From Klebsiella pneumoniae (GTDB taxonomy: Bacteria > Pseudomonadota > Gammaproteobacteria > Pseudomonadales > Pseudohongiellaceae): a stretch of 64,000 nt of DNA. The translations under genes and the position numbers were made by a program. Positions 17,131 through 62,332 of the stretch are shown here, in pieces. Position 1 is the stretch's first letter; the number at the start of each line of letters is the position of its first letter. The stretch covers positions 35,913 to 99,912 of the forward strand of contig CAMDML010000001.1 of NCBI GenBank assembly GCA_945902215.1, read 5' to 3'. The notes under the pieces are model-generated. The model saw nothing but the letters and a program-made list of their open reading frames with translations, was not told the DNA's origin and searched no databases.

Positions 17131-17164
17131 ACACATCACAACCAAAAGAGAAGTGGGAAAAGCA

Positions 17165-20783: not shown

Positions 20784-20897
20784 GACAGTGCCTGAGGCTG
20801 ATGGAAGGTGCCACGAAGAATAAAGAGGCAATCCCGCGCTGTCCATGCCGGATTAAGAGATAATGTGGCGATAAACTCAGGCATTAACGGGGAACCC

Positions 20898-21689
20898 ATG
20901 AGTACGCTCAACAAAAATCCAGCCACTATCCAAACTGCCGATTACAGTAAACATGCCAAATTGAAAGTGAAGCCGAATCCGGGGTTTGCCCACGCCAAAA
21001 ACCGTAACCTGGTGGCAGTGAGCGTAGCGGAACTCGGCATTTGTTCGGGCAATTTCCCCCTCGTGTTCGTCAAGGCCCCGGAAGACAAGCGCTATGTGCT
21101 GATGGCAATGCTGGGCTTGAAGGCCGGCGAGAACATGTATTTTGGCGAGCAGTTCTGGGAGTCCACCTATGTGCCGCTGGCGGTCCAGCGTCACCCCTTC
21201 ATTGTGGGCATTGATGAGCGTGTGCAGGATAATGAGCAGCTTGCGACGTGTCTGGAGATGGACAGCCCCTTCCTGAACGAGAAAGAGGGCGTTGCGCTGT
21301 TCAATGAAGACGGCGAGGAAAGCGAGACCCTGCGCAACGCGCACCAGTTGCTCAGCAGCATGTTTGAAGGCGGCAAGTTTACCGGGCAGTTCATCCAGAA
21401 ATTGGTGGAGTTGAATCTGGTGGTAACGCTTGATCTCTCCCTGCAACTGCGCAATGGGGAGATGCACAAGGTCTCAGGGTTGTTTACCGTGGATGAAAAC
21501 GCTTTGAAGGACCTCAGCGCTGAACAGTTGAAGGAGTTGCAGGTGCTTGGCTTCCTGGCGCCCTGCTATCTGATGCTGGTCTCACTGTACCAGTTGAACC
21601 AGTTGATCAGGCAGCGCAACCGCAAGGGTCTGGAGCAGATAACGGGTTTTCGCATCGAATTGAATGGGCAGGTTCGGGCGACTGAGTAA
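20898..21689 (+). CDS. SapC family protein (second copy)
   Basis: A 263-aa paralogue of the product at 17165: HAKLKVKPNPGFAHAKNRNLVAVSVAEL, GNFPLVFVKAPEDKRYVLMAMLGLKAGENMYF, YVPLAVQRHPFIVGIDERVQDNEQL, GLFTVDENALKDLSAEQLKEL. Divergence from the first copy indicates an old duplication. RBS ACGGGGAACCC precedes ATG 20898. It is divergent from the PQQ sugar dehydrogenase, with the shared promoter at 20784-20897. Confidence 0.9.
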   Translation: MSTLNKNPATIQTADYSKHAKLKVKPNPGFAHAKNRNLVAVSVAELGICSGNFPLVFVKAPEDKRYVLMAMLGLKAGENMYFGEQFWESTYVPLAVQRHPFIVGIDERVQDNEQLATCLEMDSPFLNEKEGVALFNEDGEESETLRNAHQLLSSMFEGGKFTGQFIQKLVELNLVVTLDLSLQLRNGEMHKVSGLFTVDENALKDLSAEQLKELQVLGFLAPCYLMLVSLYQLNQLIRQRNRKGLEQITGFRIELNGQVRATE

Positions 21690-27413: not shown

Positions 27414-28466
27414 TTGCTGCATTTCTACAAAGGCTCAATTCTTTTCACCATCGCCTGTCTCGTGTTGGGCGCTTGGTATGGCTGGTTTCTGACGGGCACC
27501 GTTGTTGGCACGTTGTCACTGTTGTGGATCGTGGTGGTGTTGTCGATTCTTGAGGTATCGCTCTCGTTCGATAACGCGGTGATCAACGCTTCGGTGCTCA
27601 AGGAAATGGATGAGCTCTGGCAACGCCGCTTCCTGACCTGGGGCATGGTCATTGCGGTATTCGGCATGCGCATCGTGTTTCCGCTGGCGATTGTCGCCAT
27701 TGCTGCCGGGCTCGGCCCCGTCGACGCAATTACCCTGTCGCTCAACGAGCCGGAAGAATACGAAGCGATTGTAAGCAGTGCGCATACCGGTATTGCCGGG
27801 TTTGGCGGTGCGTTTCTGGCTATGGTTGGTTTGAGTTTCTTTTTCGATGGTGAAAAAGATGTGCACTGGATTGAATGGCTGGAGGAAAAGCTCAAAACCA
27901 TCTCCAACATCAAGGCGGCGGAAATCGCGCTGTTGCTGGTGTGCCTGTATTTAATTTCGTTGACCCTGCCAATGGATGAGGCGCTGACTTTCATGGTGTC
28001 GGGTTGCCTGGGCCTCGTGACTTTTATTGCCGTGGAAGCCATGGGCACACTGCTCGAGATGCGGGAGCAGACGCTGGCATTACAAGGTGCCGTTGTGCGT
28101 TCGGGTCTGGGCGGGTTTATCTACCTCAACATTCTCGACAGCTCGTTCAGTTTTGATGGTGTAATCGGCGCTTTCGCTCTCTCCAACAACATGATCGTGA
28201 TTGCGCTGGGTCTCAGCATCGGTGCCCTGTTCGTACGTTCGATGACCATCATGCTGGTGAAGAAGGGCACGCTGGCCGAATATCGCTACCTGGAACACGG
28301 TGCGTTCTGGGCGATCATCGCCCTGGGCGCGATCATGTTGCTGTCAGCACGCTTCCACATTCCCGAAACGATCACGGGCTTGATTGGTGCAGTAATGATC
28401 GGCGCATCGCTGTGGTGGTCTGTGCGCCACAAGAGGCGCTACCCGAATGGCGAAATGGAGCACTGA
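27414..28466 (+). CDS. DUF475 integral membrane protein (TerC-like)
   Basis: A 350-aa polytopic protein with about 9 helices and paired acidic motifs SLSFDNAVINASVL and LDSSFSFDGVIGAFALSNN. This is the DUF475/TerC superfamily, thought to handle metal ions (Mn or Ca). Start is TTG 27414, with GAGG 7 nt upstream; no ATG gives the first helix. Its stop overlaps the ATG of the MmgE/PrpD gene (TGATG), opening a six-gene coupled run. Confidence 0.88.
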   Translation: MLHFYKGSILFTIACLVLGAWYGWFLTGTVVGTLSLLWIVVVLSILEVSLSFDNAVINASVLKEMDELWQRRFLTWGMVIAVFGMRIVFPLAIVAIAAGLGPVDAITLSLNEPEEYEAIVSSAHTGIAGFGGAFLAMVGLSFFFDGEKDVHWIEWLEEKLKTISNIKAAEIALLLVCLYLISLTLPMDEALTFMVSGCLGLVTFIAVEAMGTLLEMREQTLALQGAVVRSGLGGFIYLNILDSSFSFDGVIGAFALSNNMIVIALGLSIGALFVRSMTIMLVKKGTLAEYRYLEHGAFWAIIALGAIMLLSARFHIPETITGLIGAVMIGASLWWSVRHKRRYPNGEMEH

Positions 28467-29815
28467 TGGCCCCCACTGAAGCACTCGCAGCATATGTCGT
28501 CGACAGTAACTTCGACGCACTGCCAGCCGATGTCGTTACTGAAGCCAAGCGTGCCTTGCTCAATTATCTGGGCTGCGCGCTGGGCGGCAGCATCGAGCCG
28601 GCACTGTCGGTAGCGATCACCACCCTGGCGGAGTTTTCCGGCAAGGCCACCGCCTGTGTGCTTGGCCGCAGCGAACTTTTCGATCCCTTGCATGCCGCGC
28701 TGCTCAACGGCATCGGCTCGCATGTGCACGAATACGACGACACCACTCCCAAGAATTATGTGCACCCCAGCGTGCCAGTCGCATCGGCGCTGTTTGCTTA
28801 TGCCAGTGCCAATGCTGTTTCCGGGCGTGATTTCGTGCACGCGTTTATTCTCGGCTTCGAAGTTGAATCGCGCATTGCTGATTCCGTATACCCTGCGCAT
28901 TACGCAGCCGGCTGGCATATCACATCAACCGTCGGCGTGTTCGGTGCGGCGGCGGCGATCGGCAAGTTGCTGAAGCTCGACAAGCGCCAGATGGTATGGG
29001 CCTTCGGTCTCGCCGCCACGCAGTCCGCTGGTATCCGCGAAATGTTCGGTTCCATGGCCAAGTCCTTTCAGCCGGGCAGGGCCGCGCAGAATGGTTACAC
29101 CGCGGCTTTGCTGGCACGCGCGGATTTCAGCGCAGGAGAAAAGGCCTTGGAAGGTCCGCGTGGTTTTGCCGAAGTGACCACCGGCACTTTCGATGCCAGC
29201 AAGATCGTTGATGGACTTGGCCGCGACTTCACCCTGCGCGTCAATGCCTACAAGCCCTATGCCTGTGGATTGGTCGTGCATCCCACCATTGATGGCTGCA
29301 GCCGCTTGCGCGCCCAACATCATCCGGATCCGTCTACCATCATTGCCGTGCGCTTGCGCGTGGCGCCGCTGGTGCTGGATCTGTGCAACCAGCGTGATCT
29401 GCAACGCGCCCTGCAAAGCAAATATTCGATCTACCATGCCGCGGCCATCGGTCTGGTGCGAGGCAAGGGCGGTTTGCAGGAGTTCACCGACGCCGCGGTG
29501 CACGATCCCGCTCTGGTACGCATTCGTGCGCTGACCACCGCCATACCGGATAGCTCCATCACCGCAGACCAGGTGCACATAGAAGTGGATATGGCTTCCG
29601 GCAGTACCTTGAAATTGTTCGTCGAGCAATCGCTCGGCAATCTGCTCAATCCCCTCAACAATGCGCAGCTCGAAGACAAGTTCCGTGATCAGGCGGTGCT
29701 GGCACTGCCGCCTGTGGTGGTTGAGCAGCTCATCCAGGCGTGCTGGCGCATCGATACCTTGCCTGATGTTGGGACTCTATGCCGCGCCACTGTACCCCTC
29801 GGCGCCACTGGCTAG
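28466..29815 (+). CDS. MmgE/PrpD family protein
   Basis: A 449-aa member of the 2-methylcitrate dehydratase / aconitate decarboxylase superfamily. Landmarks: LAAYVVDSNFDALPADVVTEAKRALLNYLGCALGGS, HVHEYDDTTPKNYVHPSVPVASALFAYA, HAFILGFEVESRIADSVYPAHYAAGWHITSTVGVFGAAAA and SFQPGRAAQNGYTAALLA. Substrates vary widely in this family, so the actual substrate is open. Because it is coupled to an ABC importer, it may act on the imported compound. ATG 28466 overlaps the upstream stop. Confidence 0.92.
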   Translation: MAPTEALAAYVVDSNFDALPADVVTEAKRALLNYLGCALGGSIEPALSVAITTLAEFSGKATACVLGRSELFDPLHAALLNGIGSHVHEYDDTTPKNYVHPSVPVASALFAYASANAVSGRDFVHAFILGFEVESRIADSVYPAHYAAGWHITSTVGVFGAAAAIGKLLKLDKRQMVWAFGLAATQSAGIREMFGSMAKSFQPGRAAQNGYTAALLARADFSAGEKALEGPRGFAEVTTGTFDASKIVDGLGRDFTLRVNAYKPYACGLVVHPTIDGCSRLRAQHHPDPSTIIAVRLRVAPLVLDLCNQRDLQRALQSKYSIYHAAAIGLVRGKGGLQEFTDAAVHDPALVRIRALTTAIPDSSITADQVHIEVDMASGSTLKLFVEQSLGNLLNPLNNAQLEDKFRDQAVLALPPVVVEQLIQACWRIDTLPDVGTLCRATVPLGATG

Positions 29816-29832
29816 AGCCACGGAGAAACAGC

Positions 29833-30879
29833 ATGCACCAGAGACGAAGAAGAATGTCATGGGTGCTGCTTACGTGCTGCGCTGCCTTGCTGCTGCCCGG
29901 TTGCGGGGAAGACACCACGGATGCTGCAACGAATCCCCAAGCACAGGAAATTCGCATTCCATTGGGCGCCGGTGGCGTGGGTTTTCTGCCGCTGCTGATG
30001 GCACGGGAATACCACCTGATTGAAAAGCATGCCCTCGCAGCCGGCTTGCCGGGCCTCAGCGTGCGCTGGATCGAACTTGGCGGGCCAGCGGTGATGAACG
30101 ATGCCCTGTTGTCCGGTTCAGTTGACTTCATCGCGGCAGGGCCGCCGGCGTTTCTGACCTTGTGGGACAAGAGCCGTGGCACGGCGGATGTGCAAGGAGT
30201 GGCCGCACTGACCTCACTGCCGATGTATCTCAACACGCGGGCCGACCATTTACGCACAGTCGACGATTTGACCAACACCGACAAGGTAGCAGTCACTGCC
30301 ATCAAGGTGTCCATCCCGGCACTCATCATGCAGATGTATGCCGCGCAACAGTATGGCGCCGATGCGGCGGAACGCTTTGACCAGTACACCGTGACAATGA
30401 CGCACCCCGACGCGGTAGTGGCGCTGTTGTCTGGCTCAGGCGCAATTACTGCGCACTTCACCTCGCCGCCGTTTCACCAGCGGGAGTTGCGTGATCCCGC
30501 CATGCGAACCATCATGACTTCGCAAGAGGTGATGGCAGGCAACACCACTTTCGCCATGCTGTCGACCACACGGCGCTTTCACGATGAAAACCTGCTGGCC
30601 TATGGCGCCGTGCTGGCCGCGCTGGAAGAGGCGAACGTCATGATTCGTTCCGACCCAGCCGCCGCTGCCCAAGTGCTGGTCGATACCGAAGAGGGTGGCG
30701 GCTTCACGCGCGACGAATTGGTTGCAGTACTGAGCGACCCCGCCATTGAATTCACCACAACGCCGGCCAATGTCATGCGCTATGCCACCTTCATGCATGA
30801 GATCGGCACGCTGAACCAGTTGCCTGAGCGTTGGCAAGATTTGTTCTTCCCTGAAGTTCACAACCTGTCTGGTAATTGA
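29833..30879 (+). CDS. ABC transporter substrate-binding lipoprotein, NMT1/SsuA-like
   Basis: A 348-aa lipoprotein (LLPGC) of the nitrate/sulfonate/taurine/pyrimidine-precursor type: VGFLPLLMAREYHLIEKHAL, WIELGGPAVMNDALLSGSVDFIAAGPPAFLTLWD, then the second lobe with TAIKVSIPALIMQMYAAQQYG. CGGAG lies 7 nt before ATG 29833. Works with the ATPase and permease that follow. Ligand cannot be read from sequence; a carboxylate or sulfonate is likely for the family. Confidence 0.92.
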   Translation: MHQRRRRMSWVLLTCCAALLLPGCGEDTTDAATNPQAQEIRIPLGAGGVGFLPLLMAREYHLIEKHALAAGLPGLSVRWIELGGPAVMNDALLSGSVDFIAAGPPAFLTLWDKSRGTADVQGVAALTSLPMYLNTRADHLRTVDDLTNTDKVAVTAIKVSIPALIMQMYAAQQYGADAAERFDQYTVTMTHPDAVVALLSGSGAITAHFTSPPFHQRELRDPAMRTIMTSQEVMAGNTTFAMLSTTRRFHDENLLAYGAVLAALEEANVMIRSDPAAAAQVLVDTEEGGGFTRDELVAVLSDPAIEFTTTPANVMRYATFMHEIGTLNQLPERWQDLFFPEVHNLSGN

Positions 30880-30883
30880 AGCC

Positions 30884-31678
30884 ATGGCAGAGCCAATACA
30901 TCAGCCTTCACTGTTGTCCGTTCAGGGATTGACGCTGCAGTACCGCAATGCCGAGCGGCTACTCACCGCCAACTACCGGGTCAGCTTCGATGTGCTGCGC
31001 GCGGATCGCTTTGTGGTGCTGGGTCCTTCCGGCTGTGGCAAATCCACCCTGCTCAAGGCCATTGGCGGTTTCCACCCTGCCACGGAAGGGCGCATCTTGC
31101 TTAATGGCAGCGTGGTGCAGTCACCAGGGCCGGATCGTGCCTTTGTGTTTCAGGAATTTGATCAACTACTGCCGTGGAAGACCGTACGTGCCAACCTCGT
31201 GTTTGCACTAACCGCAGGCGCGCATTTGGCGCAAGGGGAGGCCGCTGAACGCGCGGCGCACTTTATCGACAAGGTTGGCCTGAACAAGTTTGCGGACAAC
31301 TACCCGCACACCTTGTCCGGTGGCATGAAACAACGCGTGGCCATTGCGCGTGCTTTGGCCATGGCGCCGGCCATTCTGTTGATGGATGAACCCTTCGCGG
31401 CGCTCGATGCCATGACTCGGGAAAAAATGCAGGACGAGTTGCTGCAGCTTTGGCATGAACACCACTTCACGCTGCTGTTCGTCACCCATTCGATTCCTGA
31501 AGCGCTGCGCATCGGCAACCGCATTTTGCTGCTCAGCGCACACCCGGGGCAGGTCCGCGCCGAGATCGATAGCCCTGGCCATGACGAGCGCGATGCGCAG
31601 GGCAAGCTGTTGTCGACCCGTATCCAGGAGCTGCTCTTCGACCGCGCCATTGGACCTGGAGGCAACGACCATGGCTGA
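30884..31678 (+). CDS. ABC transporter ATP-binding protein (SsuB/TauB-like)
   Basis: A 264-aa ABC ATPase. Walker A GPSGCGKST (47-55), Q-loop FQEFDQLLPWKT (from 89), signature LSGGMKQR (144-151), Walker B ILLMDEP (164-170), D-loop AALD, H-loop VTHSIPEA. The LPW after the Q-loop is typical of the nitrate/sulfonate subfamily. Starts 4 nt after the binding-protein stop; its last 8 nt overlap the permease gene. Confidence 0.95.
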   Translation: MAEPIHQPSLLSVQGLTLQYRNAERLLTANYRVSFDVLRADRFVVLGPSGCGKSTLLKAIGGFHPATEGRILLNGSVVQSPGPDRAFVFQEFDQLLPWKTVRANLVFALTAGAHLAQGEAAERAAHFIDKVGLNKFADNYPHTLSGGMKQRVAIARALAMAPAILLMDEPFAALDAMTREKMQDELLQLWHEHHFTLLFVTHSIPEALRIGNRILLLSAHPGQVRAEIDSPGHDERDAQGKLLSTRIQELLFDRAIGPGGNDHG

Positions 31679-32528
31679 CAAGCGTCCGGAAATCTTCAAT
31701 AGCCTCAGCGCACACGAATATGCCGTGATTGAAGCCCCTCGCAGCCGCTGGCAGCGACTCTACGCCAGTGGCACCTTCCGCAAATCCCTGCTGCTCATTT
31801 TGCTCATGGTGGCCTGGGAAGTTTACGCACGCGCTTTGGCCAACCCGCTGCTGTTCCCCACGTTTTTCGCCACAGTGAGCGCCATGCTGAACGCACTGCT
31901 GTCCGGTGAATTGCCGCGTGCCGCGCTTACCACGCTCACCCTGCTGTTCAAGGGTTACCTGGCCGGGTTGCTGCTCGCCGCGCTGCTGACCGCATTTGCC
32001 AGCATGACCCGCATCGGCGCGGATATTCTGGAAACCCTCACCGCCATGTTCAATCCACTGCCTTCTATCGCCATGTTGCCACTCGCACTCATCTGGTTCG
32101 GGCTGGGTGACGGCAGCATTATCTTCGTGCTCATCCACGCGGTGGTGTGGGCTGTGGCGCTCAATGCCTTCACGGGCTTCCGCAGTGTGAGCCCGACGCT
32201 GAAGATGGTTGGCCGCAACTACGGCTTGTCGCGCGCGGGCTTCGTGCTGCACATCCTGATCCCGGGCGCGTTTCCCAGCATTCTCACCGGACTCAAAATC
32301 GGCTGGGCCTTTGCCTGGCGCACACTGATTGCGGCCGAACTGGTGTTCGGTGTGAGTTCCGGCAGCGGCGGTTTGGGCTGGTACATTTACCAGAGCAAAA
32401 ACCAACTGGAGATTCCGGACGTGTTTGCGGGGCTGCTGACCGTGATATTGTTTGGACTATGTGTCGAGAATCTGGTGTTCAGGGTTATCGAAAAGCGAAC
32501 GGTGCAGCGTTGGGGTATGGCGAATTGA
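31671..32528 (+). CDS. ABC transporter permease (SsuC/TauC-like)
   Basis: A 285-aa BPD-type permease with about six helices and the EAA loop FRSVSPTLKMVGRNYGLSRAGFVLHILIPGAFPSILTGLKIGWAFAWRTLIAAE. Start ATG 31671 with GGAGG 8 nt upstream; the first 60 residues are cytoplasmic and hydrophilic. Forms the importer with the two preceding gene products. Confidence 0.94.
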   Translation: MADKRPEIFNSLSAHEYAVIEAPRSRWQRLYASGTFRKSLLLILLMVAWEVYARALANPLLFPTFFATVSAMLNALLSGELPRAALTTLTLLFKGYLAGLLLAALLTAFASMTRIGADILETLTAMFNPLPSIAMLPLALIWFGLGDGSIIFVLIHAVVWAVALNAFTGFRSVSPTLKMVGRNYGLSRAGFVLHILIPGAFPSILTGLKIGWAFAWRTLIAAELVFGVSSGSGGLGWYIYQSKNQLEIPDVFAGLLTVILFGLCVENLVFRVIEKRTVQRWGMAN

Positions 32529-33280
32529 AAAATCACACTCTCTTGGAGGGCAGAACTCTCGTTATCGGCGACATCCACGGCGGCTTGCGTGCATTGCAGC
32601 AGGTGCTGGCACGGGCAGAAGTGGCCCCCGAGGATCTTCTGGTGTTTCTGGGTGACTATGTTGATGGCTGGAGTGAGTCGCCTGCCGTGCTGGATTTTCT
32701 CCTCGGATTGAAGGAGCGCCAGCGCTGCATTTTCCTGCGTGGCAACCATGACATGCTGTTGCTCGACTGGTTGCGCAAGGGAGTTGAAAATCCCAACTGG
32801 CTCAAACACGGCGGGCGCAGCACGCTGCTCGCCTACCAGTCAATGCCGCAGTCCGTGAAAGCACAGCATGCTGCCTTCATTGAAAATGAATTGGTAGACT
32901 TTTATCAGGATGCACAGCAACGGCTGTTCGTGCATGCCGGCTTCACCCATATTCGCGGTTTTCAGAATGAATACTTCAAGCCGATGCTCTACTGGGATCG
33001 TTCGCTGTGGGAAACCGCGCTGGCGCTTGATCCGGCACTGCCGAAGGACAGCGTGCGCTATCCGGCGCGCTTGAAGTTGTATCCGGAAGTGTTCATCGGC
33101 CATACCCCGACCACCCAGATTGGCAGCAAGCAACCGCTGCAGGCGGCCTGTGTGTGGAACCTTGACACCGGTGCCGGCTTCACCGGGCCGTTGACGCTGA
33201 TGGATGTGGACAGCAAGCGTTACTGGCAGAGCGATGACGTGCACACGCTGTATCCGGATGAATCCCCCCGTCTTTTATAG
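32525..33280 (+). CDS. Metallophosphoesterase (serine/threonine phosphatase-like)
   Basis: A 251-aa calcineurin-like phosphoesterase: GDIHG (15-19), GDYVDG (43-48), GNHD (73-76), later VHAGF and GHTP. These are the bimetal-site motifs of the PPP/ApaH group; the closest arrangement is bacterial protein phosphatases of the PrpA type. No ATG gives the first strand; TTG 32525 overlaps the permease stop (TTGA), consistent with coupling, and is taken as start. Its link with the importer is unexplained. Confidence 0.85.
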   Translation: MKNHTLLEGRTLVIGDIHGGLRALQQVLARAEVAPEDLLVFLGDYVDGWSESPAVLDFLLGLKERQRCIFLRGNHDMLLLDWLRKGVENPNWLKHGGRSTLLAYQSMPQSVKAQHAAFIENELVDFYQDAQQRLFVHAGFTHIRGFQNEYFKPMLYWDRSLWETALALDPALPKDSVRYPARLKLYPEVFIGHTPTTQIGSKQPLQAACVWNLDTGAGFTGPLTLMDVDSKRYWQSDDVHTLYPDESPRLL

Positions 33281-33296: not shown

Positions 33297-34535
33297 CTAC
33301 CCGCCACTCAGCAACGTTTCCAAGGCCTGCTCGCGCACCCCGTAAAACTGTTTGATCCCGGCAATTTGCTCCAGCAGTTCGCTATGCCGTGCTGCGCTGA
33401 GTGCTTGTGAGCGCTTCACTGCCAGAATCATTTTGTTCTTGCTGGTGTGCTCCAGTGAGACGAATTCAAACACTTGCGTGGCGTAGCCCTCGGCTTCCAG
33501 CAATAGTGCGCGCAGGCCGTCGGTTACCATTTCGGCTTCCTGGCCCAGATGAATGCCATGTTGCAGCAAGGGACGCAACACCGCCGGGCTTGCCATCTGC
33601 GGGCGCAGTTGTTTGTGACAGCACGGCGAGCACATGATGATTTCCGCACCTGCGCGCAGGCCAAGGTGAATGGCAAAGTCAGTCGCGGTATCGCAAGCAT
33701 GCAGGGCGATCATCACGTCGAGGTGCGCAGGTGTATAACTGCGCATATCACCGTGCTCGAAGCGCAGGCCCTGCAGATTGGAACGTGTGGCCGCATCGCT
33801 GCACAGCTTCACCATGTCGGCGCGCAGTTCAACGCCAGTAACCTGAGCCTCTTTGCCTTGCCCGCGCAGCCAATCATGGATGGCAAAGGTCAGATAACCC
33901 TTGCCTGAGCCAAAGTCGGCGACTTGCACTGCAGGGCTGTTGGCCAGCGCAGAACTTTTCAGCGCGGCGCTGAACACGTCAATAAAGTGATTGATCTGCT
34001 TCCACTTGCGCGCCATCGCCGGCACCAGCGTGCGCACACCTTTGAGTTCATGGGTCAGCCCCAGATCATCCCAGAAGGGGCGGTCGAGTTCACACTGCCG
34101 GTGCTTTTCACGGTCGTGGCCGGCTGCCGCTGGCAAGACCGGCGCGGCCAGCTTGCCGACATGCAGGCTGGGCCGGCCTTTGCGGCTGTAGGCCAGTTGC
34201 AACTCTTCGCTTTGGGTCTGCAGATGGGCATGCAGAAAACGTTTGCCCAGCCAAACATGCAGTTCGGCCAGCAGTGCATCGGGTCGGTGGTTCTTGGTGA
34301 TATCTCGCGTTTTGTAGTGCCACAGCAAACTGATCTGCGGCTCGCCCTTGATCATCACCGCACGTGCTGTGACCCGTTCCAGTTGCGCGTCTTCCTCGTG
34401 CTGTGGCTTGCCCAGCACCAACTTGACGAAGTGCCCATCCGCCAGCGCCGTTGCCACGTGGTGCAGAAAGCGCGCAGTGGCGTCGGGGGGTGGCGAAGGC
34501 GTGTTGGTGCCGTCGGGAATCGGCTGGGTGGGCAT
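33297..34535 (-). CDS. SAM-dependent methyltransferase (Methyltransferase_32 / METTL25-like)
   Basis: A 412-aa protein. N-terminal about 170 residues are of unknown fold; then a Rossmann methyltransferase with VADFGSGKGYLTFAIHDWL (motif I), VTGVELRADMVKLC (motif II), the characteristic ALHACDTATDFAIHLGL and the CSPCCHKQL motif, as in the METTL25/RRNAD group, which may act on RNA or protein. ATG immediately follows the stop of the carboxyltransferase gene (TAA ATG), making it the last gene of the carboxylase operon; whether it serves that pathway is unclear. Confidence 0.85.
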   Translation of the reverse strand: MPTQPIPDGTNTPSPPPDATARFLHHVATALADGHFVKLVLGKPQHEEDAQLERVTARAVMIKGEPQISLLWHYKTRDITKNHRPDALLAELHVWLGKRFLHAHLQTQSEELQLAYSRKGRPSLHVGKLAAPVLPAAAGHDREKHRQCELDRPFWDDLGLTHELKGVRTLVPAMARKWKQINHFIDVFSAALKSSALANSPAVQVADFGSGKGYLTFAIHDWLRGQGKEAQVTGVELRADMVKLCSDAATRSNLQGLRFEHGDMRSYTPAHLDVMIALHACDTATDFAIHLGLRAGAEIIMCSPCCHKQLRPQMASPAVLRPLLQHGIHLGQEAEMVTDGLRALLLEAEGYATQVFEFVSLEHTSKNKMILAVKRSQALSAARHSELLEQIAGIKQFYGVREQALETLLSGG

Positions 34536-36005
34536 TTATCTGGCACCCGAGCGTAGTTCAAGAGTAAAACCCGGCTTCTGCACTTTGAAGTCCGACACCG
34601 CCGGCCGCTTCTTCAGCTCAGCGAGCAACTTCAACACCGGACTGAGCTCTGGATTGTAATACAGCTGATCTGGCGCCCGCGTGTTCATGGCATCCACCTG
34701 ATCCGGCGGCATCACTGCCCGCAGCAGAAACTCTTCATCGGACATGCTGGCCGGGAACAGTTTGCGGCGATCCTTCAAGGTCATCTTGGTGGGTTCTTGC
34801 TGGATTTCGGCAGTGCGGGGCAGGGCCATGATGCGGTCCAGCACATTCGGGTCGACTGGTGCGGTGGGGCGGCCAAAGCGGCCGAGTACATAGCGAATTA
34901 CCTGGTCGGGAATGTTGCTGTAGCGTTCCTCCGCCAGCACATTGAACATGGCCTGCGTGGTGACGATCTGCGGGAAGGGTGTGACCATGATCGGCGAACC
35001 CAGTTCAGTCCGCACGCGTTCCACTTCGACCATGACTTCGTCGAAGCGATGTTCAAGTTTTAATTCAGCCAATTGGCGGCGGGTGGTGGTGAGGACGCCA
35101 CCTGCCAGCTGATGGCGCAAGTAAGAGGCGTCGTAGGCTTGCGGTTGGCCTGCGGGCAGCCCTTCGGCACGCGCCAGGGCATGGTAGTACTGCTCCAGTT
35201 TGCGCAGCGCTTGCTCGTCTACGTCAACAGCGTGGCCGTGCGTCTTCAAGTTGGCAATCGTTTGGCTGGCGCAGGGCAGGGACGAGCCATGCGCCAGCGG
35301 CCCCACGGCAACATGCAGTGCAGCAATGCCGAGTTCAGCACCGACCATGTAGTTGAACTGCGACAGACCGATGGTGCAATGCGAATGCAGTTCGAGTGGC
35401 AGCTTGCCGATTTGCTGTTTTATTGCAGGAATCAGGGTGCGTGCACGTTCCGGACTGAGCAGGCCGGATGGGTCTTTCAAATAGAGCAAATCAAAATAGC
35501 CGGATTGCGCCATTTGCCGCGCGCAGTTGGCGTAAAACGCATCATCGTGCACAGCGCTGAGTGTGAAGGTGAGGGCGCCCATGTTCTCAGCTTCGCCTTC
35601 TTCCTTTACCAGTTTAGCCACTTCAATGACGGCATTCATGTCATGCATGGGGTCGAGCAATACGAAGCGGCCAATGCCGGCTTTCATCAGTGTGCGATAG
35701 GCAAGACGCATGAAATCATGGTCGGCCGTTTCCCATGAGATGAAACGAAAGCCGGTGGAAATGAATTGCAGTGGTACTGTTGGCAGTGCGCGATGCATCA
35801 GGCGAATACGTTGCCAGGGATCATCCTTGTTGTACCGAACGCCAACGGCCATGTGGGTGCTGGAGGTGAAATCAATGGCGCGGAAACCCACGCGTTCCAT
35901 CAGCGGCGCGGCCTGTAGCATCTGCGCGGTGTTGATGCCAGTCATGCTCCACAGACTTTGGTTGCCGTCACGGATGCTGACATCAACCAGTTTAAGCGTG
36001 GCCAT
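34536..36005 (-). CDS. Biotin-dependent carboxyltransferase subunit, PycB/OadA-like, altered substrate site
   Basis: A 489-aa TIM-barrel carboxyltransferase. Metal and catalytic motifs are kept: DVSIRDGNQS (8-17, Asp metal ligand and Gln16), YLKDPSGLLSP (the Lys that is carbamylated in pyruvate carboxylase) and LELHSHCTIG (His-x-His metal ligands). The segment DPWQRIRLMHRALPTVPLQF aligns well with pyruvate carboxylase and OadA, but where those have MLLRG, with the Arg that holds the pyruvate carboxylate, this protein has FISTG (Thr84). Also LECWGGATF is replaced by IDFTSSTHM. The substrate is therefore probably not a 2-oxo acid. The C-terminus lacks a biotinyl domain. ATG 36005 has GGAGG upstream and overlaps the BC gene by 14 nt. 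Confidence 0.9.
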   Translation of the reverse strand: MATLKLVDVSIRDGNQSLWSMTGINTAQMLQAAPLMERVGFRAIDFTSSTHMAVGVRYNKDDPWQRIRLMHRALPTVPLQFISTGFRFISWETADHDFMRLAYRTLMKAGIGRFVLLDPMHDMNAVIEVAKLVKEEGEAENMGALTFTLSAVHDDAFYANCARQMAQSGYFDLLYLKDPSGLLSPERARTLIPAIKQQIGKLPLELHSHCTIGLSQFNYMVGAELGIAALHVAVGPLAHGSSLPCASQTIANLKTHGHAVDVDEQALRKLEQYYHALARAEGLPAGQPQAYDASYLRHQLAGGVLTTTRRQLAELKLEHRFDEVMVEVERVRTELGSPIMVTPFPQIVTTQAMFNVLAEERYSNIPDQVIRYVLGRFGRPTAPVDPNVLDRIMALPRTAEIQQEPTKMTLKDRRKLFPASMSDEEFLLRAVMPPDQVDAMNTRAPDQLYYNPELSPVLKLLAELKKRPAVSDFKVQKPGFTLELRSGAR

Positions 36006-37368
36006 CGTTTGCCTCCTGAGGCAATGGATGAGCGGCGAGATGGATTGGCAGAAAGCCGGTATCAACACCGCCTTGCTGAAACGCTGGCGCGGCACACACC
36101 GACTTATGCAGGGCCAGGTTGGTGGGTACGCCTTCAATCTGGCAGTCGGTTAACGCCGCCTGCATGCGCTGCAAGGCTTGCGCACGGTCTTTGCCGTGTA
36201 CGATCAATTTGCCGAGCAGTGAATCATAGTAGGGCGGCACCATGGCGCCCTGTTGAATGTGGGTATCCATGCGAATACCAATACCGGCAGGAAATTGTGC
36301 CTTGGTAATGGTGCCGGGCACGGGGCGGAAATCGGCCGCGCAATCTTCCGCATTGATACGGCACTCGATGGCATGGCCATCAAACTGGATATCCTGCTGG
36401 CGTAGATGCAGCCCTTTGCCTTCAGCAATGCGAATTTGTGCGGCGATCAGGTCTTGATGACAGATGGCTTCGGTAACCGGATGCTCGACCTGGATGCGGG
36501 CGTTCATTTCCAGAAAGTAGAAACTGGCGCGCTCCACATCCACCAGAAATTCCACGGTGCCAGCGCCGAGGTAGCGCAGGTGTTGCCCGAATTTCACAGC
36601 AGCATCATGGATTGCAGTGCGCAAAGCCTCGCTCAAGTTGGGCGCGGGCGCTTCTTCAAGCAGTTTCTGGTAGCGCCGCTGCACGGAGCAGTCACGCGTG
36701 CCTAGATGAATAATGTGGCTGCCATCGCCAAGCAACTGCACTTCCACATGGCGACCGCTGCGCACATAACGTTCGATATAGAGGCGGGAATCCGCAAAAG
36801 CGGCCTGGGCTTCGGCAGTCGCCAACTGCAATGCTGCATGCAGCGCAGCTACATCAGTCACCAACTTCATGCCGCGGCCACCGCCACCACCCACCGCTTT
36901 GATCAGCACCGGCAAGCCGAGGCTTTGCACCAGCGCTTCGGCATCAGCCAGGGTATTTACTTCGCCACCTGGCACCACCGGCAATCCAGCTTGCACGGCA
37001 TTGCCGCGCGCCAACAGCTTGTCGCCAATGGCCAACAATTGCGCTGGCGTAGGGCCAATGAAGATCAGGCCGGCATCCTTACAGGCCTGTGCGAGTCGGG
37101 AATTTTCTGACAGGAAACCATAACCGGGATGAATCGCATCGGCCTTTACTTGCAGTGCAGCGTTGATCACGGCAGTGACGTTCAGATAACTGGCAGCAGC
37201 GGGCGCCGGGCCCAGCACGACGACTTGCTCCGCAAGCCGTGCGGCCATGGAGTCAGTATCGGCACTGGAAGCGGCCAATACCGTGTCAATGCCGAGCTGG
37301 CGACAGGTGCGAATGATGCGAACCGCGATTTCGCCGCGATTGGCGATCAAAATGCGCTGGATATTCAT
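35992..37368 (-). CDS. Biotin carboxylase subunit (AccC-like)
   Basis: A 458-aa ATP-grasp enzyme that carboxylates biotin with bicarbonate and ATP. ILIANRGEIAVRIIRTCRQLG opens the pre-ATP-grasp domain; HPGYGFLSEN, LIKAVGGGGGRGMK (ATP glycine loop), ERYVRSGRHVEVQLLGD and EMNARIQVEHPVTE (catalytic Arg and metal Glu) are all intact. Its ATG shares a base with the BCCP stop (TAATG). Dedicated copy, separate from any fatty-acid ACC genes, in the dikinase/carboxyltransferase operon. Confidence 0.95.
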   Translation of the reverse strand: MNIQRILIANRGEIAVRIIRTCRQLGIDTVLAASSADTDSMAARLAEQVVVLGPAPAAASYLNVTAVINAALQVKADAIHPGYGFLSENSRLAQACKDAGLIFIGPTPAQLLAIGDKLLARGNAVQAGLPVVPGGEVNTLADAEALVQSLGLPVLIKAVGGGGGRGMKLVTDVAALHAALQLATAEAQAAFADSRLYIERYVRSGRHVEVQLLGDGSHIIHLGTRDCSVQRRYQKLLEEAPAPNLSEALRTAIHDAAVKFGQHLRYLGAGTVEFLVDVERASFYFLEMNARIQVEHPVTEAICHQDLIAAQIRIAEGKGLHLRQQDIQFDGHAIECRINAEDCAADFRPVPGTITKAQFPAGIGIRMDTHIQQGAMVPPYYDSLLGKLIVHGKDRAQALQRMQAALTDCQIEGVPTNLALHKSVCAAPAFQQGGVDTGFLPIHLAAHPLPQEANDGHA

Positions 37369-37838
37369 TACTGCGGCCTGACCCGCAACAACAACTGGCC
37401 CTTTTCAACCAGAGTGGCATCGGTAGCCAGAATCTCGACCACAGTACCTTGCTGTTTGGCGGGTACGGAGGTCATCAGCTTCATCGCTTCAATGATACCG
37501 ATCACCGTGTTTGCGCCAACGTTACTGCCGATCTGAATGAACGGTTCGGCGCCGGGCATTGGCGCCCGATACCAGGTGCCTATCATCGGGGCGCGTACAT
37601 CGAGCAAGCCTGCTTCTGTTGGTGGCGGTTCGGCTTCGGTGGCAGTTGCTGTGTCAGCAAGTTTGGTCTGTGCAAGATTGGGCTTGGCGGCCACAGCATT
37701 GCTTTGTTGCCAGCCTGTGCCATCGGGGTTACGCAGCAAGTTCAAGGTAAAGGATTCGGTTTGCAGCGTCAGTTCATTGTAGGGACTTTCATCCAGCAGC
37801 TTGAGCAGCGCCTGCACATCTTGATAATTCAGGCTCAT
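37368..37838 (-). CDS. Biotin carboxyl carrier protein
   Basis: A 156-aa BCCP. N-terminal 35 residues resemble AccB (YQDVQALLKLLDESPYNELTL), then a Pro/Ala/Thr/Glu linker (about 50-78) and a biotinyl domain with the acceptor Lys120 in EAMKLM; the AccB-type thumb region appears as PGAEPFIQIGSNV. The start directly follows the stop of the ATP-binding subunit gene (TAA ATG). It should shuttle carboxyl between the biotin carboxylase and the carboxyltransferase encoded just downstream. Confidence 0.93.
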   Translation of the reverse strand: MSLNYQDVQALLKLLDESPYNELTLQTESFTLNLLRNPDGTGWQQSNAVAAKPNLAQTKLADTATATEAEPPPTEAGLLDVRAPMIGTWYRAPMPGAEPFIQIGSNVGANTVIGIIEAMKLMTSVPAKQQGTVVEILATDATLVEKGQLLLRVRPQ

Positions 37839-38876
37839 TTACTTCTTCACGCCTCCCATTATATTAAAGATGTGGTCAAAGGCGCGGGCCGCCGGCTTGG
37901 CCACCGCGCCATGTTCTTTGCTGGCCCAGACGGTTTCTGGCCGGCTTTGCAGCAAAAAAATAGTGCCGTCCTGATCCAGGGCCCATTCAATGTCTTGCGG
38001 ACTGCCATAGTGTTGTTCGACTTGTTTGCCGAGGGCGACCAAGGCGTGAATTTGCGCATCGCTCAGGCAGCATTGTGTGCGGCGTTCCGCGCTGACTTCC
38101 TGTTCGAGAACGCCACCGCCGTCAGCAGGGACGTGCTCAATGGCTTTGTCAGCCACTACCCGGGTGCGAATTTCGCGGGTAACTTTGTTGATCACAAAGC
38201 GGTCGGGCGTCACTTCACCGCTGACGATGGCCGAACCCAAACCCCAACTGCCTTCGATGGTGATTACCGAACGATCACCCGTGGTGGGACTGCGCGTGAA
38301 CATGACGCCAGAACAACGTGAGTTCACCATACGCTGTACGACCACAGCCATCGCCAGTTGGGCTTCCGGCAAGTTTAAGCGCAGCCGGTAACTCACTGAC
38401 TCAGGACTGTAGAGCGAGGCCCAGCACGAACGAATTTTGCTGATGAGCTCCGCTTCGTTTTTCACCCACAGATAGGTGTCCTGCAAACCGGCAAAGCTTG
38501 CTTCGGCGCTGTCTTCACTGGTGGCACTGGAGCGCACGGCGACTGGATGGGTGGCACCAAGCTCGGCATAGCTGCGCGCAATCGTGGCGAGCAGTTGTGT
38601 TGCCAAGGGTTCATGTTCAATCAGGGCACGAATCGCGGCAGTGCACTGTTGAATCGCGGGCAGATCATCCTTGTTGAGTGCCGTGATACGCGCACGGATG
38701 GCGTGCAATTGATCCAGTGCTTGCAGCCACTCATTGAAAGCCACGGTGCTAATGACGAAGCCGGGCGGAATCGGCAAGCCGGCCCCAGTCATTTCACCAA
38801 GGCTGGCACCTTTGCCGCCGGCGAATGGACGATCATGAATGCCGAGCTCTTTGAACCACAAGACGGGTTGTTGCAT
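37839..38876 (-). CDS. ATP-binding subunit of a split dikinase (PEP-synthase N-domain-like)
   Basis: A 345-aa stand-alone PPDK/PEP-synthase nucleotide-binding domain. FAGGKGASLGEMTGAGLPIPPGFVI, VAVRSSATSEDSAEASFAGLQDTYL (from 112), EGSWGLGSAIVSGEVTPDRFVI and EWALDQDGTIFLLQSRPET are all standard. It lacks the swivelling His domain and the PEP/pyruvate barrel, so it needs a partner; the adjacent upstream gene supplies a His domain. Size matches the 40-kDa subunit of phenylphosphate synthase. Expected reaction: ATP to AMP and Pi with phosphoryl transfer to the partner His. Confidence 0.9.
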   Translation of the reverse strand: MQQPVLWFKELGIHDRPFAGGKGASLGEMTGAGLPIPPGFVISTVAFNEWLQALDQLHAIRARITALNKDDLPAIQQCTAAIRALIEHEPLATQLLATIARSYAELGATHPVAVRSSATSEDSAEASFAGLQDTYLWVKNEAELISKIRSCWASLYSPESVSYRLRLNLPEAQLAMAVVVQRMVNSRCSGVMFTRSPTTGDRSVITIEGSWGLGSAIVSGEVTPDRFVINKVTREIRTRVVADKAIEHVPADGGGVLEQEVSAERRTQCCLSDAQIHALVALGKQVEQHYGSPQDIEWALDQDGTIFLLQSRPETVWASKEHGAVAKPAARAFDHIFNIMGGVKK

Positions 38877-38886
38877 GCGTGTGCGC

Positions 38887-40704
38887 TCAATCCAGAATTG
38901 TTACAACGCCAGTGTCACCATCCACGCGCAGCCGCTGCCCATTCTTGATGCGCTTGGTGGCATCGCCGGTGCCCACTACGGCAGGCATGCCATATTCACG
39001 CGCCACAATGGCCATATGCGACATGGTACCCCCGATGTCCGACACGGCCGCCTTGATCTTGCTGAACAGTGGCCCCCAACTGGGGTGCGTGATGGGGCAC
39101 ACCAGAATGTCGCCTTCTTTGATCTCGCCGAAATCATTGATGCTGCGCAGTACCCGCGCTACCCCTTCGACCACGCCCGCCGATGCGGCGTAGCCACGCA
39201 CTTCGTTTTCATTGCGGCCTGCACCGGCACTCGCCCAGCCATGCAGGGTTTCGGTGGTGATACCCCACAGCATTTGCAAGGCAGGATCTTCAATGTTGCC
39301 CGGCATGGGCCCGATGGCCGGAGGTGCCTGCCACTCGCCCAGCACTTTCAGCATGCGGCGGCGCTCGGTGATGACCGGCTTCCAGTAATCCGGTTGTGAG
39401 GGGGGTGAACCGGCAGCCCAACTGTTCATGATGTTGCTGAGCACAAGGCTGATTTCGCTGTGGTGCAGATGGAAAATGTCTTCCTGCTTGTCGATCAACG
39501 CATAACGCTGCAGCAAATCACCAAACTGGCGCATCTTGTTGAAGAAGGCCGTGGTGAGCCAGTGTTCGCAATAAAACTTGTGGTCTTCGACATACGGAAA
39601 CACCAAATGGGACACGCTGAGCATCTGGTCGAAGGCGGCACGTTCTTCATCGGTGGACAACAGGTTGCGATATTCATCGATGATGCGCTGGCGTTCGATT
39701 TTCAATGCTGCAGTGGGGCGTTCCAGGTTATCGCCCTTGCGCACTTTTTCAATGTAATGCGGTAGCGCCGACAAGGGCACTGTCAGATCGTCGTTCCAGC
39801 TGCGTTCATAGTGGTAGAAACCATCACCAATGGAGATGTTGAACCAGGGATCGCGTGACTCGGCCAGCGCCTTGAGCCAGCGTTGGCCCGCGGCTCCGTG
39901 CTTTGCCACTGCCGGCAGAATGACTTCTGGATTGCCATCTGTGGTGAAACATTTGTCGAGGTTGAGTTCTACTGCCAGTTTGGCCAGTTTTTTCAATTCG
40001 TCGTCCGGGCGGAACATCAACACATCAATGCCGGCGACCATGCGCGCCACCGTCTGGTCAGTGATTTCCGGGAAGGCTTGTTTGCAGAACTGGAAGAACA
40101 CCACATAGGCGCCATAACCCAGCATCAGCATTTCGAAGTGGTGATGCCACATCTGCGAATAGAGTTCGAGGGTGCGGTGGTAGGCCACACGCAGGTAATG
40201 GTTCTGCGCGATGCCGGTGGAGTTGGTGACGACTGCTTCATCTTCATAGTCGGGCAGTTCCGGAATCTTGATCGCGGTCATATCCTTGATCAGTTGGCCC
40301 ATGCGTCCTTCCCACCCGGAATAAATGGTATTCCAGTTTTCGTAGTAGTGGCCGGCGCGGCGCCGGAAAATGTCGAGGCGTTCCTGGATCTCGGCCGGAT
40401 CGCTGGCAACGTTGGCGCTGATGTAGATGCGGCCGTTGATGCAGCGGTAATCAATACCCTTGCCGGTGGGAAACGCGAACACACGATTCACGTAAGCGCC
40501 CATCGCATGGTAGGCGGCTTCAGCCGTGATCATGTCGAAGGCCGACATGGGTTCGGAGAAATGCATGGAGTTATAAAACCAGAAGCGTTTGTCGTCGTCT
40601 GGTTGGACCTTGGTGAAGTACGGGTACATCTCACCCCAGTTTTCGGCTCCTGCTACCGGCCCGATGGAGGTGGGCATTGGAAAAGGATTCAATTTCATGT
40701 TCAT
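38887..40704 (-). CDS. Phospho-histidine subunit of a split dikinase (PEP-utilising mobile domain plus substrate domain)
   Basis: A 605-aa protein, first in its operon. Residues 1 to about 500 are largely helical, resembling the substrate-binding segment of phenylphosphate synthase or rifampin phosphotransferase, with aromatic-rich text (FWFYNSMHFSEPMSAFD, HHHFEMLMLGYGAYVVFF). The C-terminal about 90 residues are the PEP-utilising swivelling domain: EGDILVCPITHPSWGPLFSKIKAAVSDIGG, then SHMAIVAREYGMPAVVG with phospho-acceptor His563. There is no PEP/pyruvate TIM barrel, so it is not PEP synthase or PPDK. Size fits the 70-kDa phenylphosphate synthase subunit. GGGGAG precedes ATG 40704. Phosphoryl acceptor unknown. 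Confidence 0.88.
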   Translation of the reverse strand: MNMKLNPFPMPTSIGPVAGAENWGEMYPYFTKVQPDDDKRFWFYNSMHFSEPMSAFDMITAEAAYHAMGAYVNRVFAFPTGKGIDYRCINGRIYISANVASDPAEIQERLDIFRRRAGHYYENWNTIYSGWEGRMGQLIKDMTAIKIPELPDYEDEAVVTNSTGIAQNHYLRVAYHRTLELYSQMWHHHFEMLMLGYGAYVVFFQFCKQAFPEITDQTVARMVAGIDVLMFRPDDELKKLAKLAVELNLDKCFTTDGNPEVILPAVAKHGAAGQRWLKALAESRDPWFNISIGDGFYHYERSWNDDLTVPLSALPHYIEKVRKGDNLERPTAALKIERQRIIDEYRNLLSTDEERAAFDQMLSVSHLVFPYVEDHKFYCEHWLTTAFFNKMRQFGDLLQRYALIDKQEDIFHLHHSEISLVLSNIMNSWAAGSPPSQPDYWKPVITERRRMLKVLGEWQAPPAIGPMPGNIEDPALQMLWGITTETLHGWASAGAGRNENEVRGYAASAGVVEGVARVLRSINDFGEIKEGDILVCPITHPSWGPLFSKIKAAVSDIGGTMSHMAIVAREYGMPAVVGTGDATKRIKNGQRLRVDGDTGVVTILD

Positions 40705-45112: not shown

Positions 45113-45601
45113 CTACGGAATGTTGCGACTCTGAATCAGCCACTGGCCGTTCTGTTTCGTCACAACATCGTCGTAATAGCCCATGTTGGAGACGGTGAAT
45201 GGCCCCCCAGCAGGCCCCGCAAGCACCTGCCAATACGAGCGGTGCCGTGCTGTGGTGGCGCTGTCAAACTCAATCATGGTGTTGGAGATTGAGTGAAAAC
45301 TTTTTGTTGCGGGTTCAGCCGGTGCGCTTTCTCTGCGCTGCTTTGCACCTGTGATAAAAGCCCTGATCTCCTCCCGCCCATTCAAGGTATTGCCGGTAAA
45401 GCTGAAGACAGCATCTTCAGCAAAGACGCTGACATAACCCTCGACATCAAGCGTGTCGTAGACATGGGCATATTTTACGATCAGTTGCTGAATTGCCACG
45501 GTATCCTGCGCGCGCGTGTCAGTCATGGGTTCTGCGGCGAATACTGAAATGCCAGCCATCACAAACAGTCCAGCGATCGTGTTCTTCAATATATGCAGCA
45601 T
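45113..45601 (-). CDS. NTF2/SnoaL-like secreted protein
   Basis: A 162-aa protein: signal peptide (MAGISVFAA), then DTVAIQQLIVKYAHVYDTLDVEGYVSVFAEDAVFSFTGNTLNGREEI and the C-terminal YYDDVVTKQNGQWLIQSRNIP, a typical SnoaL_4 layout. It is divergent from the Baeyer-Villiger-type monooxygenase with a shared promoter region that carries a 50-bp sequence repeated upstream of 49224-50030. AGGAAGGAG precedes the ATG. Confidence 0.85.
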   Translation of the reverse strand: MLHILKNTIAGLFVMAGISVFAAEPMTDTRAQDTVAIQQLIVKYAHVYDTLDVEGYVSVFAEDAVFSFTGNTLNGREEIRAFITGAKQRRESAPAEPATKSFHSISNTMIEFDSATTARHRSYWQVLAGPAGGPFTVSNMGYYDDVVTKQNGQWLIQSRNIP

Positions 45602-45638: not shown

Positions 45639-45691
45639 ACGTGGCGTTTGTTGAGTTGAGCTTAGCCGGTGTGCAAGAAGCTTGCAAACAA
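45639..45691. promoter_or_regulatory. Candidate shared promoter/operator, copy 1
   Basis: 45641-45690 is 44/50 identical to 50111-50160, though the neighbouring genes are unrelated. It contains TGCAAGAAGCTTGCA, a 6-3-6 inverted repeat. Reading toward the minus-strand gene, TTGCAA and TAAGCT stand 17 bp apart in both copies, a possible -35/-10 pair. Lies between 45601 and 45771. Confidence 0.6.
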
Positions 45692-45770
45692 TCCTCCGCT
45701 GGTCGCTAAGGGAGCAATCGTTTATTCTCGACATGAACCTTGGCATCCCACTGTTTGCAAGAGTCTGAAG

Positions 45771-62296: not shown

Positions 62297-62332
62297 GGTA
62301 ATGGCCCTCTATGTTTTCAGGCGGTCCCTGGC

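What the first reader, a model, noticed from the sequence alone, without database searches (positions are those of the whole stretch)
33297..40704. Operon joining a split dikinase to a complete biotin-dependent carboxylase
Six tightly packed minus-strand genes (gaps -14 to 10 nt) encode a phospho-His subunit with a large helical substrate domain (605 aa, His563), an ATP-binding subunit (345 aa), BCCP (Lys120), biotin carboxylase, carboxyltransferase and a methyltransferase. Known logic: phenylphosphate synthase (about 70 and 40 kDa subunits) phosphorylates phenol with ATP giving AMP and Pi, and a separate carboxylase then uses phenylphosphate. Here the carboxylase is biotin-dependent. Inference: an alcohol, enol or phenol-like substrate is phosphorylated and then carboxylated by a biotin enzyme. 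I know of no described pathway with this gene set.
Basis: partly seen in the sequence, partly recalled or inferred. Interest (0 to 1): 0.93.

Follow-up and report, generated by a model that had tools for sequence, protein, structure and literature searches.

The report
Aryl-ketone carboxylation operon, swapped phosphatase
This bacterial operon is homologous to the published hydroxyphenylethanone (Hpe) pathway, so it likely phosphorylates a plant-derived phenolic ketone and then would carboxylate it with a biotin enzyme; that route is already known, but in this genus the usual phosphatase gene was not found and an unrelated phosphatase gene beside the operon is predicted to do its job.

Summary
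In detail: six packed minus-strand genes encode a helical/His-swivel kinase subunit (His563), an ATP-grasp subunit, BCCP (Lys120), biotin carboxylase, carboxyltransferase and a methyltransferase. The inference "phosphorylate, then carboxylate with a biotin enzyme" is very likely correct but not new: it is the Hpe/Acv pathway for 4-hydroxyacetophenone and acetovanillone (PMC9618137, PMC12167813). The best solved match of the 345-aa subunit is HpeI itself (9GOJ). The 605-aa protein sits among carboxylase-linked kinases, apart from phenylphosphate synthases. Kinase and carboxyltransferase occur in the same 10 of 57 related genomes. The methyltransferase is beside the operon in none of 8 relatives compared. 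New: the Hpe-type HAD phosphatase was not found in the six operon-bearing genomes of this genus; a calcineurin-like phosphatase occurs in exactly those six, near the operon, but not in five operon-less congeners (three under 90% complete) or four operon-bearing sister-genus genomes, which have the HAD gene. Substrate probably 4-hydroxyacetophenone: the genome has PobA and LigAB, no VanA match. Verdict: new variant of a known pathway.

The parts
38887..40704 (-). HpeH-like kinase subunit: helical substrate domain plus C-terminal swivel domain with His563 (605 aa)
   Evidence: Pfam PEP-utilizers, NCBIfam PRK08296.1-5 over cut-off; H563 invariant in 10 and in 31 aligned proteins; model matches rifampin phosphotransferase best; tree
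37839..38876 (-). HpeI-like ATP-grasp kinase subunit (345 aa)
   Evidence: PPDK_N; best solved match 9GOJ = HpeI, E 3.7e-78
37368..37838 (-). Biotin carboxyl carrier protein, Lys120 (156 aa)
   Evidence: Biotin_lipoyl; AMKL with K120
35992..37368 (-). Biotin carboxylase subunit (458 aa)
   Evidence: Biotin_carb_N, CPSase_L_D2, Biotin_carb_C
34536..36005 (-). Carboxyltransferase subunit, ATG start at 36005 (489 aa)
   Evidence: HMGL-like and PYC_OADA; TGxRF motif shared with 8 other aligned hpe-type CTs, RGQN in solved pyruvate carboxylase, oxaloacetate decarboxylase and transcarboxylase 5S
32525..33280 (+). Calcineurin-like metallophosphoesterase, predicted replacement of the HAD phosphatase HpeD (251 aa, TTG start); convergent to the operon
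   Evidence: Metallophos; orthologs in exactly the 6 operon-bearing genomes of the genus; 4-nt overlap with the CT gene in 3 of them; PPP motifs
33297..34535 (-). Methyltransf_32 protein abutting the CT gene; probably not a pathway gene (412 aa)
   Evidence: not next to the CT in any of 8 relatives
45113..45601 (-). Small protein (162 aa) whose homologs (71-74% identity) lie near the operon in two relatives; possible accessory, function unknown
   Evidence: the homolog in L076 is SnoaL_4

Best explanation
The first five genes are homologs of the hydroxyphenylethanone (Hpe) pathway's two-component kinase and three-subunit biotin carboxylase; they likely phosphorylate the phenol group of 4-hydroxyacetophenone with ATP and then would carboxylate its methyl ketone, and a calcineurin-like phosphatase encoded beside them is predicted to remove the phosphate in place of the usual HAD enzyme HpeD. 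Inferred mechanism: the ATP-grasp subunit passes a phosphoryl group from ATP to His563 of the swivel domain, which delivers it to the phenol oxygen held in the helical domain, leaving AMP and Pi. Biotin carboxylase charges the carrier protein with bicarbonate and a second ATP. The carboxyltransferase moves the carboxyl group to the ketone's methyl carbon. The phosphatase would release 4-hydroxybenzoylacetate. A CoA ligase and a beta-keto cleaving enzyme encoded elsewhere (not identified) would give 4-hydroxybenzoate, which PobA and LigAB would degrade via protocatechuate. Shown here: the genes, their conservation, co-occurrence and phylogeny, and the presence of PobA, LigA and LigB. Shown by others for homologs: the kinase, carboxylase and HAD phosphatase reactions. 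Not tested: the activities of these proteins, their substrate and the phosphatase replacement.
For: 345-aa subunit's best solved match is HpeI, 9GOJ. Swivel motif S-xx-GG-xxx-H with Met two before the His, as described for HpeH. The 605-aa model's six best PDB matches are all rifampin phosphotransferase. In the tree rooted on Azoarcus phenylphosphate synthase, a 67-row clade (support 95) holds all 53 carboxylase-linked rows, 14 undetermined or unlinked rows and no ppc-linked row; the 40-row clade around the window (99) has 33 carboxylase-linked rows and 7 without, which by the drawn tree are all at contig ends. Kinase and CT in the same 10 of 57 genomes. Complete clusters with HAD, CoA ligase and amidohydrolase in Rhizobium leguminosarum BT01 and Rhodococcus sp. 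JS3073. CT motif TGxRF in 9 of 9 aligned hpe-type CTs. Phosphatase: HAD homolog in 4 of 11 genomes searched, all sister-genus carriers; calcineurin-like ortholog in 6 of 57, all carriers of the window's genus; 4-nt overlap with CT in G001, G007, G009. PobA and LigA/LigB over curated cut-offs in the own genome; no VanA_C match there.
Against: No activity data. The HpeF-type hydrolase and the S. bisphenolicum-type cleavage enzyme have no match in the own genome, and the CoA ligase candidate is acetoacetate-CoA ligase-like and also present in operon-less G010, so the pathway's last two steps are not accounted for. In the window and G004 the phosphatase is convergent to the operon, not in it; its TTG start overlaps the stop of an ABC permease gene. 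Other HAD or unspecific phosphatases could act. The phosphatase pattern spans two genera and may be one event; three of the five operon-less congeners are under 90% complete. GD02, SYK-6 and EbN1 operon sequences were not obtained; only HpeI (9GOJ) was compared directly. Tree: quick method, with long-branch warnings. 8 of 80 fetched loci have the kinase with neither carboxylase nor ppc genes in view.
Confidence: 0.78

Rival explanations
1. Same chemistry, other main substrate: the pair acts on another para-acyl phenol (acetovanillone, acetosyringone, 4-hydroxypropiophenone or similar), with 4-hydroxyacetophenone minor.
For: Homologs differ in preference (GD02 HpeHI against SYK-6 AcvAB, PMC13101465 passages); the other 10 of 11 genomes searched have VanA_C matches; HpeHI itself takes several phenols.
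Against: The own genome, rated 100% complete, has no VanA_C match but has PobA. Tetrahydrofolate-type demethylases were not searched.
Confidence: 0.25
2. The calcineurin-like phosphatase is a signalling or housekeeping enzyme that merely lies nearby; the pathway's phosphate is removed by an unidentified HAD or unspecific phosphatase.
For: The family is annotated as serine/threonine phosphatase by sources; in the window it is on the opposite strand and abuts an ABC permease gene.
Against: Orthologs in exactly the 6 operon-bearing genomes of the genus and none of the 5 operon-less ones (three of these incomplete); 4-nt overlap with CT in 3 genomes; three protein pairs share exact contig lengths with 605-aa homologs.
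Confidence: 0.3
3. PEP synthase plus pyruvate- or acyl-CoA-type carboxylase for central metabolism, or a phenylphosphate synthase.
For: Domain names alone read that way; 45% identity to Azoarcus KH32C phenylphosphate synthase subunit.
Against: Similarity to PEP synthase is confined to the swivel domain; the CT lacks the RGQN of solved pyruvate-type enzymes; no phenylphosphate carboxylase genes were found near it in the relatives' loci scanned for them (L136-L144), nor in the window's annotated ORFs around it; it falls outside the ppc-linked rows in the tree.
Confidence: 0.03

Closest known systems
Hpe pathway of Rhodococcus rhodochrous GD02 (HpeHI, HpeCBA, HpeD, HpeE, HpeF; PMC9618137, PMC12167813)
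   Same: Two-component His-swivel dikinase followed by a three-subunit biotin carboxylase in one operon; best solved match of the ATP subunit is HpeI.
   Different: No HAD phosphatase (HpeD) or HpeF homolog found in the own genome; a calcineurin-like phosphatase gene beside the operon; the last two steps not located.
Acv pathway of Sphingobium lignivorans SYK-6 and XccABC of Aromatoleum aromaticum EbN1 (as described in PMC9618137 and PMC13101465)
   Same: Kinase plus biotin carboxylase for hydroxyphenylethanones; [quoted passage not shown]
   Different: Sequences not obtained, so no identity measured; Acv has its phosphatase in the operon.
Phenylphosphate synthase PpsAB (compared here: Azoarcus sp. 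KH32C)
   Same: Two-component dikinase, 45% identity of the large subunit.
   Different: Followed by phenylphosphate carboxylase genes, not biotin enzymes; separate in the tree.
Rifampin phosphotransferase (RPH)
   Same: Best fold match of the 605-aa model.
   Different: RPH is one chain acting on an antibiotic (PMC12167813); here two chains in a predicted catabolic operon.
Lambda serine/threonine phosphatase, PnkP phosphatase domain, ApaH
   Same: Closest solved relatives of the calcineurin-like protein.
   Different: About 20% identity; linked to a catabolic operon here.

Membership tests
Hpe/Acv pathway | Two-component kinase with S/T-xx-GG-xxx-H and Met two before the His | tested here: met
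   SDIGGTMSH, H563; motif as described in PMC12167813
Hpe/Acv pathway | Kinase groups with carboxylase-linked kinases rather than phenylphosphate synthases | tested here: met
   67-row clade with 53 carboxylase-linked and 0 ppc-linked rows, support 95; GD02 and SYK-6 sequences not included
Hpe/Acv pathway | Three-subunit biotin carboxylase encoded with the kinase | tested here: met
Hpe/Acv pathway | HAD phosphatase HpeD | tested here: not met
   No match in the own genome or 5 other carriers of the genus; present in 4 sister-genus carriers
Hpe/Acv pathway | HpeE-type CoA ligase | tested here: inconclusive
   47% match in the own genome, but acetoacetate-CoA ligase-like and present in 11 of 11 genomes including operon-less G010
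Hpe/Acv pathway | HpeF-type beta-ketoacyl-CoA hydrolase | tested here: not met
   0 in the own genome; 3 of 11 genomes have the amidohydrolase type
Hpe/Acv pathway | Phosphorylation and carboxylation activity on hydroxyphenylethanones | not testable with these tools
   needs enzyme assays
Phenylphosphate synthase / phenylphosphate carboxylase | Followed by ppc carboxylase genes | tested here: not met
   biotin carboxylase genes follow; contrast Azoarcus KH32C
PEP synthase | One chain with ATP, swivel and PEP/pyruvate-binding domains | tested here: not met
   two chains; similarity only at the swivel domain in the 605-aa protein
Pyruvate carboxylase / oxaloacetate decarboxylase | RGQN signature in the CT domain (as seen in the solved members aligned) | tested here: not met
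   STGF there; TGxRF invariant in 9 hpe-type CTs

The most novel reading that the evidence does not exclude
One lineage of gammaproteobacteria has rebuilt the Hpe pathway by replacing its HAD phosphatase with a PPP-family, lambda-phosphatase-like metallophosphoesterase, possibly acquired from Bacteroidota, so that a phosphatase type known from signalling became a catabolic enzyme for an aryl-phosphate intermediate.
Probability: 0.58. Interest if true: 0.45.

Novelty: new variant of a known kind. Interest (0 to 1): 0.36.

Why it matters
It places a costly route for lignin-type phenolic ketones, whose growth phenotype is reported for only four strains or their mutants (PMC13101465, passages), in a further bacterial lineage, and gives a clear test case of non-orthologous replacement of one pathway step. 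For annotators it shows that a 'PEP synthase plus acetyl-CoA carboxylase' run can be a phenolic-ketone operon, with the CT motif TGxRF (against RGQN) as a candidate marker.

Tried and rejected
Rejected: PEP synthase or pyruvate carboxylase readings; phenylphosphate synthase; the methyltransferase as a pathway enzyme; a PcaGH route, because the only intradiol match in the own genome scores below the cut-offs of the catechol and protocatechuate 3,4-dioxygenase models.

Led nowhere: literature searches for the phosphatase replacement (no paper with both 'hydroxyphenylethanone' and 'metallophosphoesterase'; none of the 15 of 164 papers listed holds 'Pseudohongiellaceae'), for lake bacteria and 4-hydroxyacetophenone (only 8 of 192 listed) and for the MarK kinase. 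GD02, SYK-6 and EbN1 operon sequences were not obtained. The first tree (84 rows) had a wrong ORF for L137; it was rebuilt with the right one and without three rows, L194, L207 and L214, dropped by hand for long branches (81 rows); two of these (L194, L207) are among the 8 loci with neither carboxylase nor ppc genes in view, whose role stays unknown.
Full report
Observation. Six minus-strand ORFs at 33297-40704 are as described. With the carboxyltransferase (CT) started at the ATG at 36005, gaps are +10, 0, -1, -14 and 0 nt; His563 and Lys120 are in place. Pfam and NCBIfam give a PEP-utilizing mobile domain, PPDK_N, Biotin_lipoyl, biotin carboxylase, HMGL-like/PYC_OADA and Methyltransf_32. The window is C1:35913-99912 of a 2.85-Mb genome in 107 contigs, rated 100% complete. 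Homologs of the 605-aa protein at 79-94% identity are named as Gammaproteobacteria, Pseudomonadota or Pseudohongiellaceae MAGs where a name is given; the organism itself is not named.

What is known. In Rhodococcus rhodochrous GD02, HpeHI phosphorylates acetovanillone and 4-hydroxyacetophenone, the biotin enzyme HpeCBA carboxylates the phosphorylated ketones and not the free ones, HpeD dephosphorylates the products, and HpeE and HpeF are proposed to cleave them (PMC9618137; parts 1-4 of 6 read). HpeHI makes mainly AMP, its swivel His is essential, and HpeI was solved as 9GOJ (PMC12167813; parts 1-3 of 6 read, plus passages). A homologous Acv pathway exists in SYK-6, and kinase and carboxylase genes lay in one cluster in 52 of 836 cases (PMC13101465; passages only).

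Membership of the core. The best solved match of the 345-aa subunit is HpeI, E 3.7e-78. The 605-aa model (pLDDT 89.7) has rifampin phosphotransferase as its six best PDB matches (TM by query length 0.40-0.62), as PMC12167813 reports for HpeH. The tree has 81 rows: these loci less three, plus the window, R. leguminosarum, Rhodococcus JS3073 and Azoarcus KH32C. Rooted on the last, a 67-row clade (SH-aLRT 95) holds all 53 carboxylase-linked rows and no ppc row, and 14 of neither kind; the 40-row clade around the window (99) holds 33 carboxylase-linked rows and 7 others, which in the drawn tree are all loci cut off by contig ends. Long-branch warnings make deep nodes unsure. Complete clusters with HAD phosphatase, CoA ligase and amidohydrolase are seen in R. 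leguminosarum BT01 and Rhodococcus JS3073.

Co-occurrence. Among 57 genomes (own, 10 same genus, 25 same family, 21 same order) the full-length 605-aa protein is in 10 and the CT in the same 10 (G003's CT match is 142 residues). Other CT matches in the 57 are at most 35% identical, that is, other carboxylases.

Carboxyltransferase. Solved pyruvate carboxylase, oxaloacetate decarboxylase and transcarboxylase 5S chains have RGQN where the window has STGF; TGxRF is invariant in the nine hpe-type CTs aligned. That this Arg binds the carboxylate of pyruvate is recalled, not tested; its absence would fit a substrate without that group.

The phosphatase. The four sister-genus carriers (G011, G018, G027, G032) have a HAD protein, 44-45% identical to that of the Pseudomonas putida YC-AE1 carboxylase cluster, 2-6 kb downstream of the CT with other genes between. 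Searched over 11 genomes it was found in those 4 only, in none of the 6 carriers of the window's genus. Those 6 have a calcineurin-like protein at >=75% identity; it is missing from the 5 operon-less members of the genus (G002, G005, G006, G008, G010; completeness 73, 88, 90, 81, 99%) and from the 4 sister-genus carriers, the other matches in the 57 being weak (best E 4.2e-9). It overlaps the CT gene by 4 nt in G001, G007 and G009, lies 20 nt from the CT match in G003, and is convergent to it at about 3.1 kb in G004 and 1.3 kb in the window. In the window its TTG start overlaps the stop codon of an ABC permease gene. GDIHG, GDYxDGW, GNH and His115, His137, His193 are invariant or nearly so in 33 aligned proteins. 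The model (pLDDT 84.9) matches the PnkP phosphatase domain, lambda phosphatase and ApaH. Of the 120 best homologs listed, 39 are at 69-86% identity and the rest at 62% or less; the four organisms named among the latter are flavobacteria and kin (their class is recalled), one named among the former is labelled Candidatus Acidoferrum. Three pairs share exact longest-contig lengths with 605-aa homologs (155945, 36685, 11038), so both genes probably lie on the same contigs. Of 47 fetched loci with CT and at least one other carboxylase subunit, 38 have a HAD gene, 3 the calcineurin-like gene and 6 neither, 5 of these ending within 739 nt of the CT. The pattern rests on two genera and may be one event.

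Substrate and later steps. The own genome has PobA, and adjacent LigA and LigB over cut-offs with an oxalomesaconate tautomerase nearby, but no VanA_C match, unlike the other 10 of 11. This favours 4-hydroxyacetophenone going to 4-hydroxybenzoate; other demethylases were not searched. The HpeF-type hydrolase is in 3 of 11 genomes, not in the own; the S. bisphenolicum-type enzyme has no match there; the CoA ligase candidate is generic. These two steps stay open.

Methyltransferase. It abuts the CT in the window only among the nine genomes compared; in G004 a sulfotransferase and an unassigned ORF lie between CT and phosphatase.

Verdict. The core is a member of a described pathway; the inferred phosphatase replacement makes it a variant. 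Searches showed no paper on that replacement in the held library, which lacks most subscription journals.

Noticed in passing
28412-33280: MmgE/PrpD-like protein, NMT1-type binding protein, ABC ATPase and permease run into the calcineurin-like phosphatase on the plus strand; none of the first four has a homolog within the stretches fetched around the operon in 8 relatives.
   Followed up: partly
45669-47321: FMO/Baeyer-Villiger-type monooxygenase about 5 kb from the operon; such enzymes are another known route for aryl ketones (AcpA in PMC9618137), so it could be a second entry.
   Followed up: no
L034 8883-10130; L036 8972-10204: In Pseudomonas putida YC-AE1 and Sphingomonas bisphenolicum plasmids a Tm-1-like ATP-binding protein stands where HpeHI would be, before the biotin carboxylase genes; perhaps the one-component kinase type called MarK (identity not checked).
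   Followed up: no
L040, L199, L201, L205: Thermomicrobium and kin carry HpeHI-like kinase pairs without the CT gene in view, next to a divergent biotin carboxylase gene (and, in L040, xanthine dehydrogenase-type genes); substrate unknown.
   Followed up: no
L208 and L209: HpeHI-like kinase pairs in an Acidimicrobiia MAG and an Archaeoglobi MAG with neither biotin carboxylase nor ppc genes recognised nearby.
   Followed up: no
59663-63988: Two adjacent proteins with CEMIP beta-helix domains, one also with a G8 domain.
   Followed up: no
17120-17959 and 20808-21689: Two SapC-family genes flank a carboxylesterase and a glucose/sorbosone dehydrogenase gene; a GSDH gene also lies beside the operon in three sister-genus genomes.
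   Followed up: no
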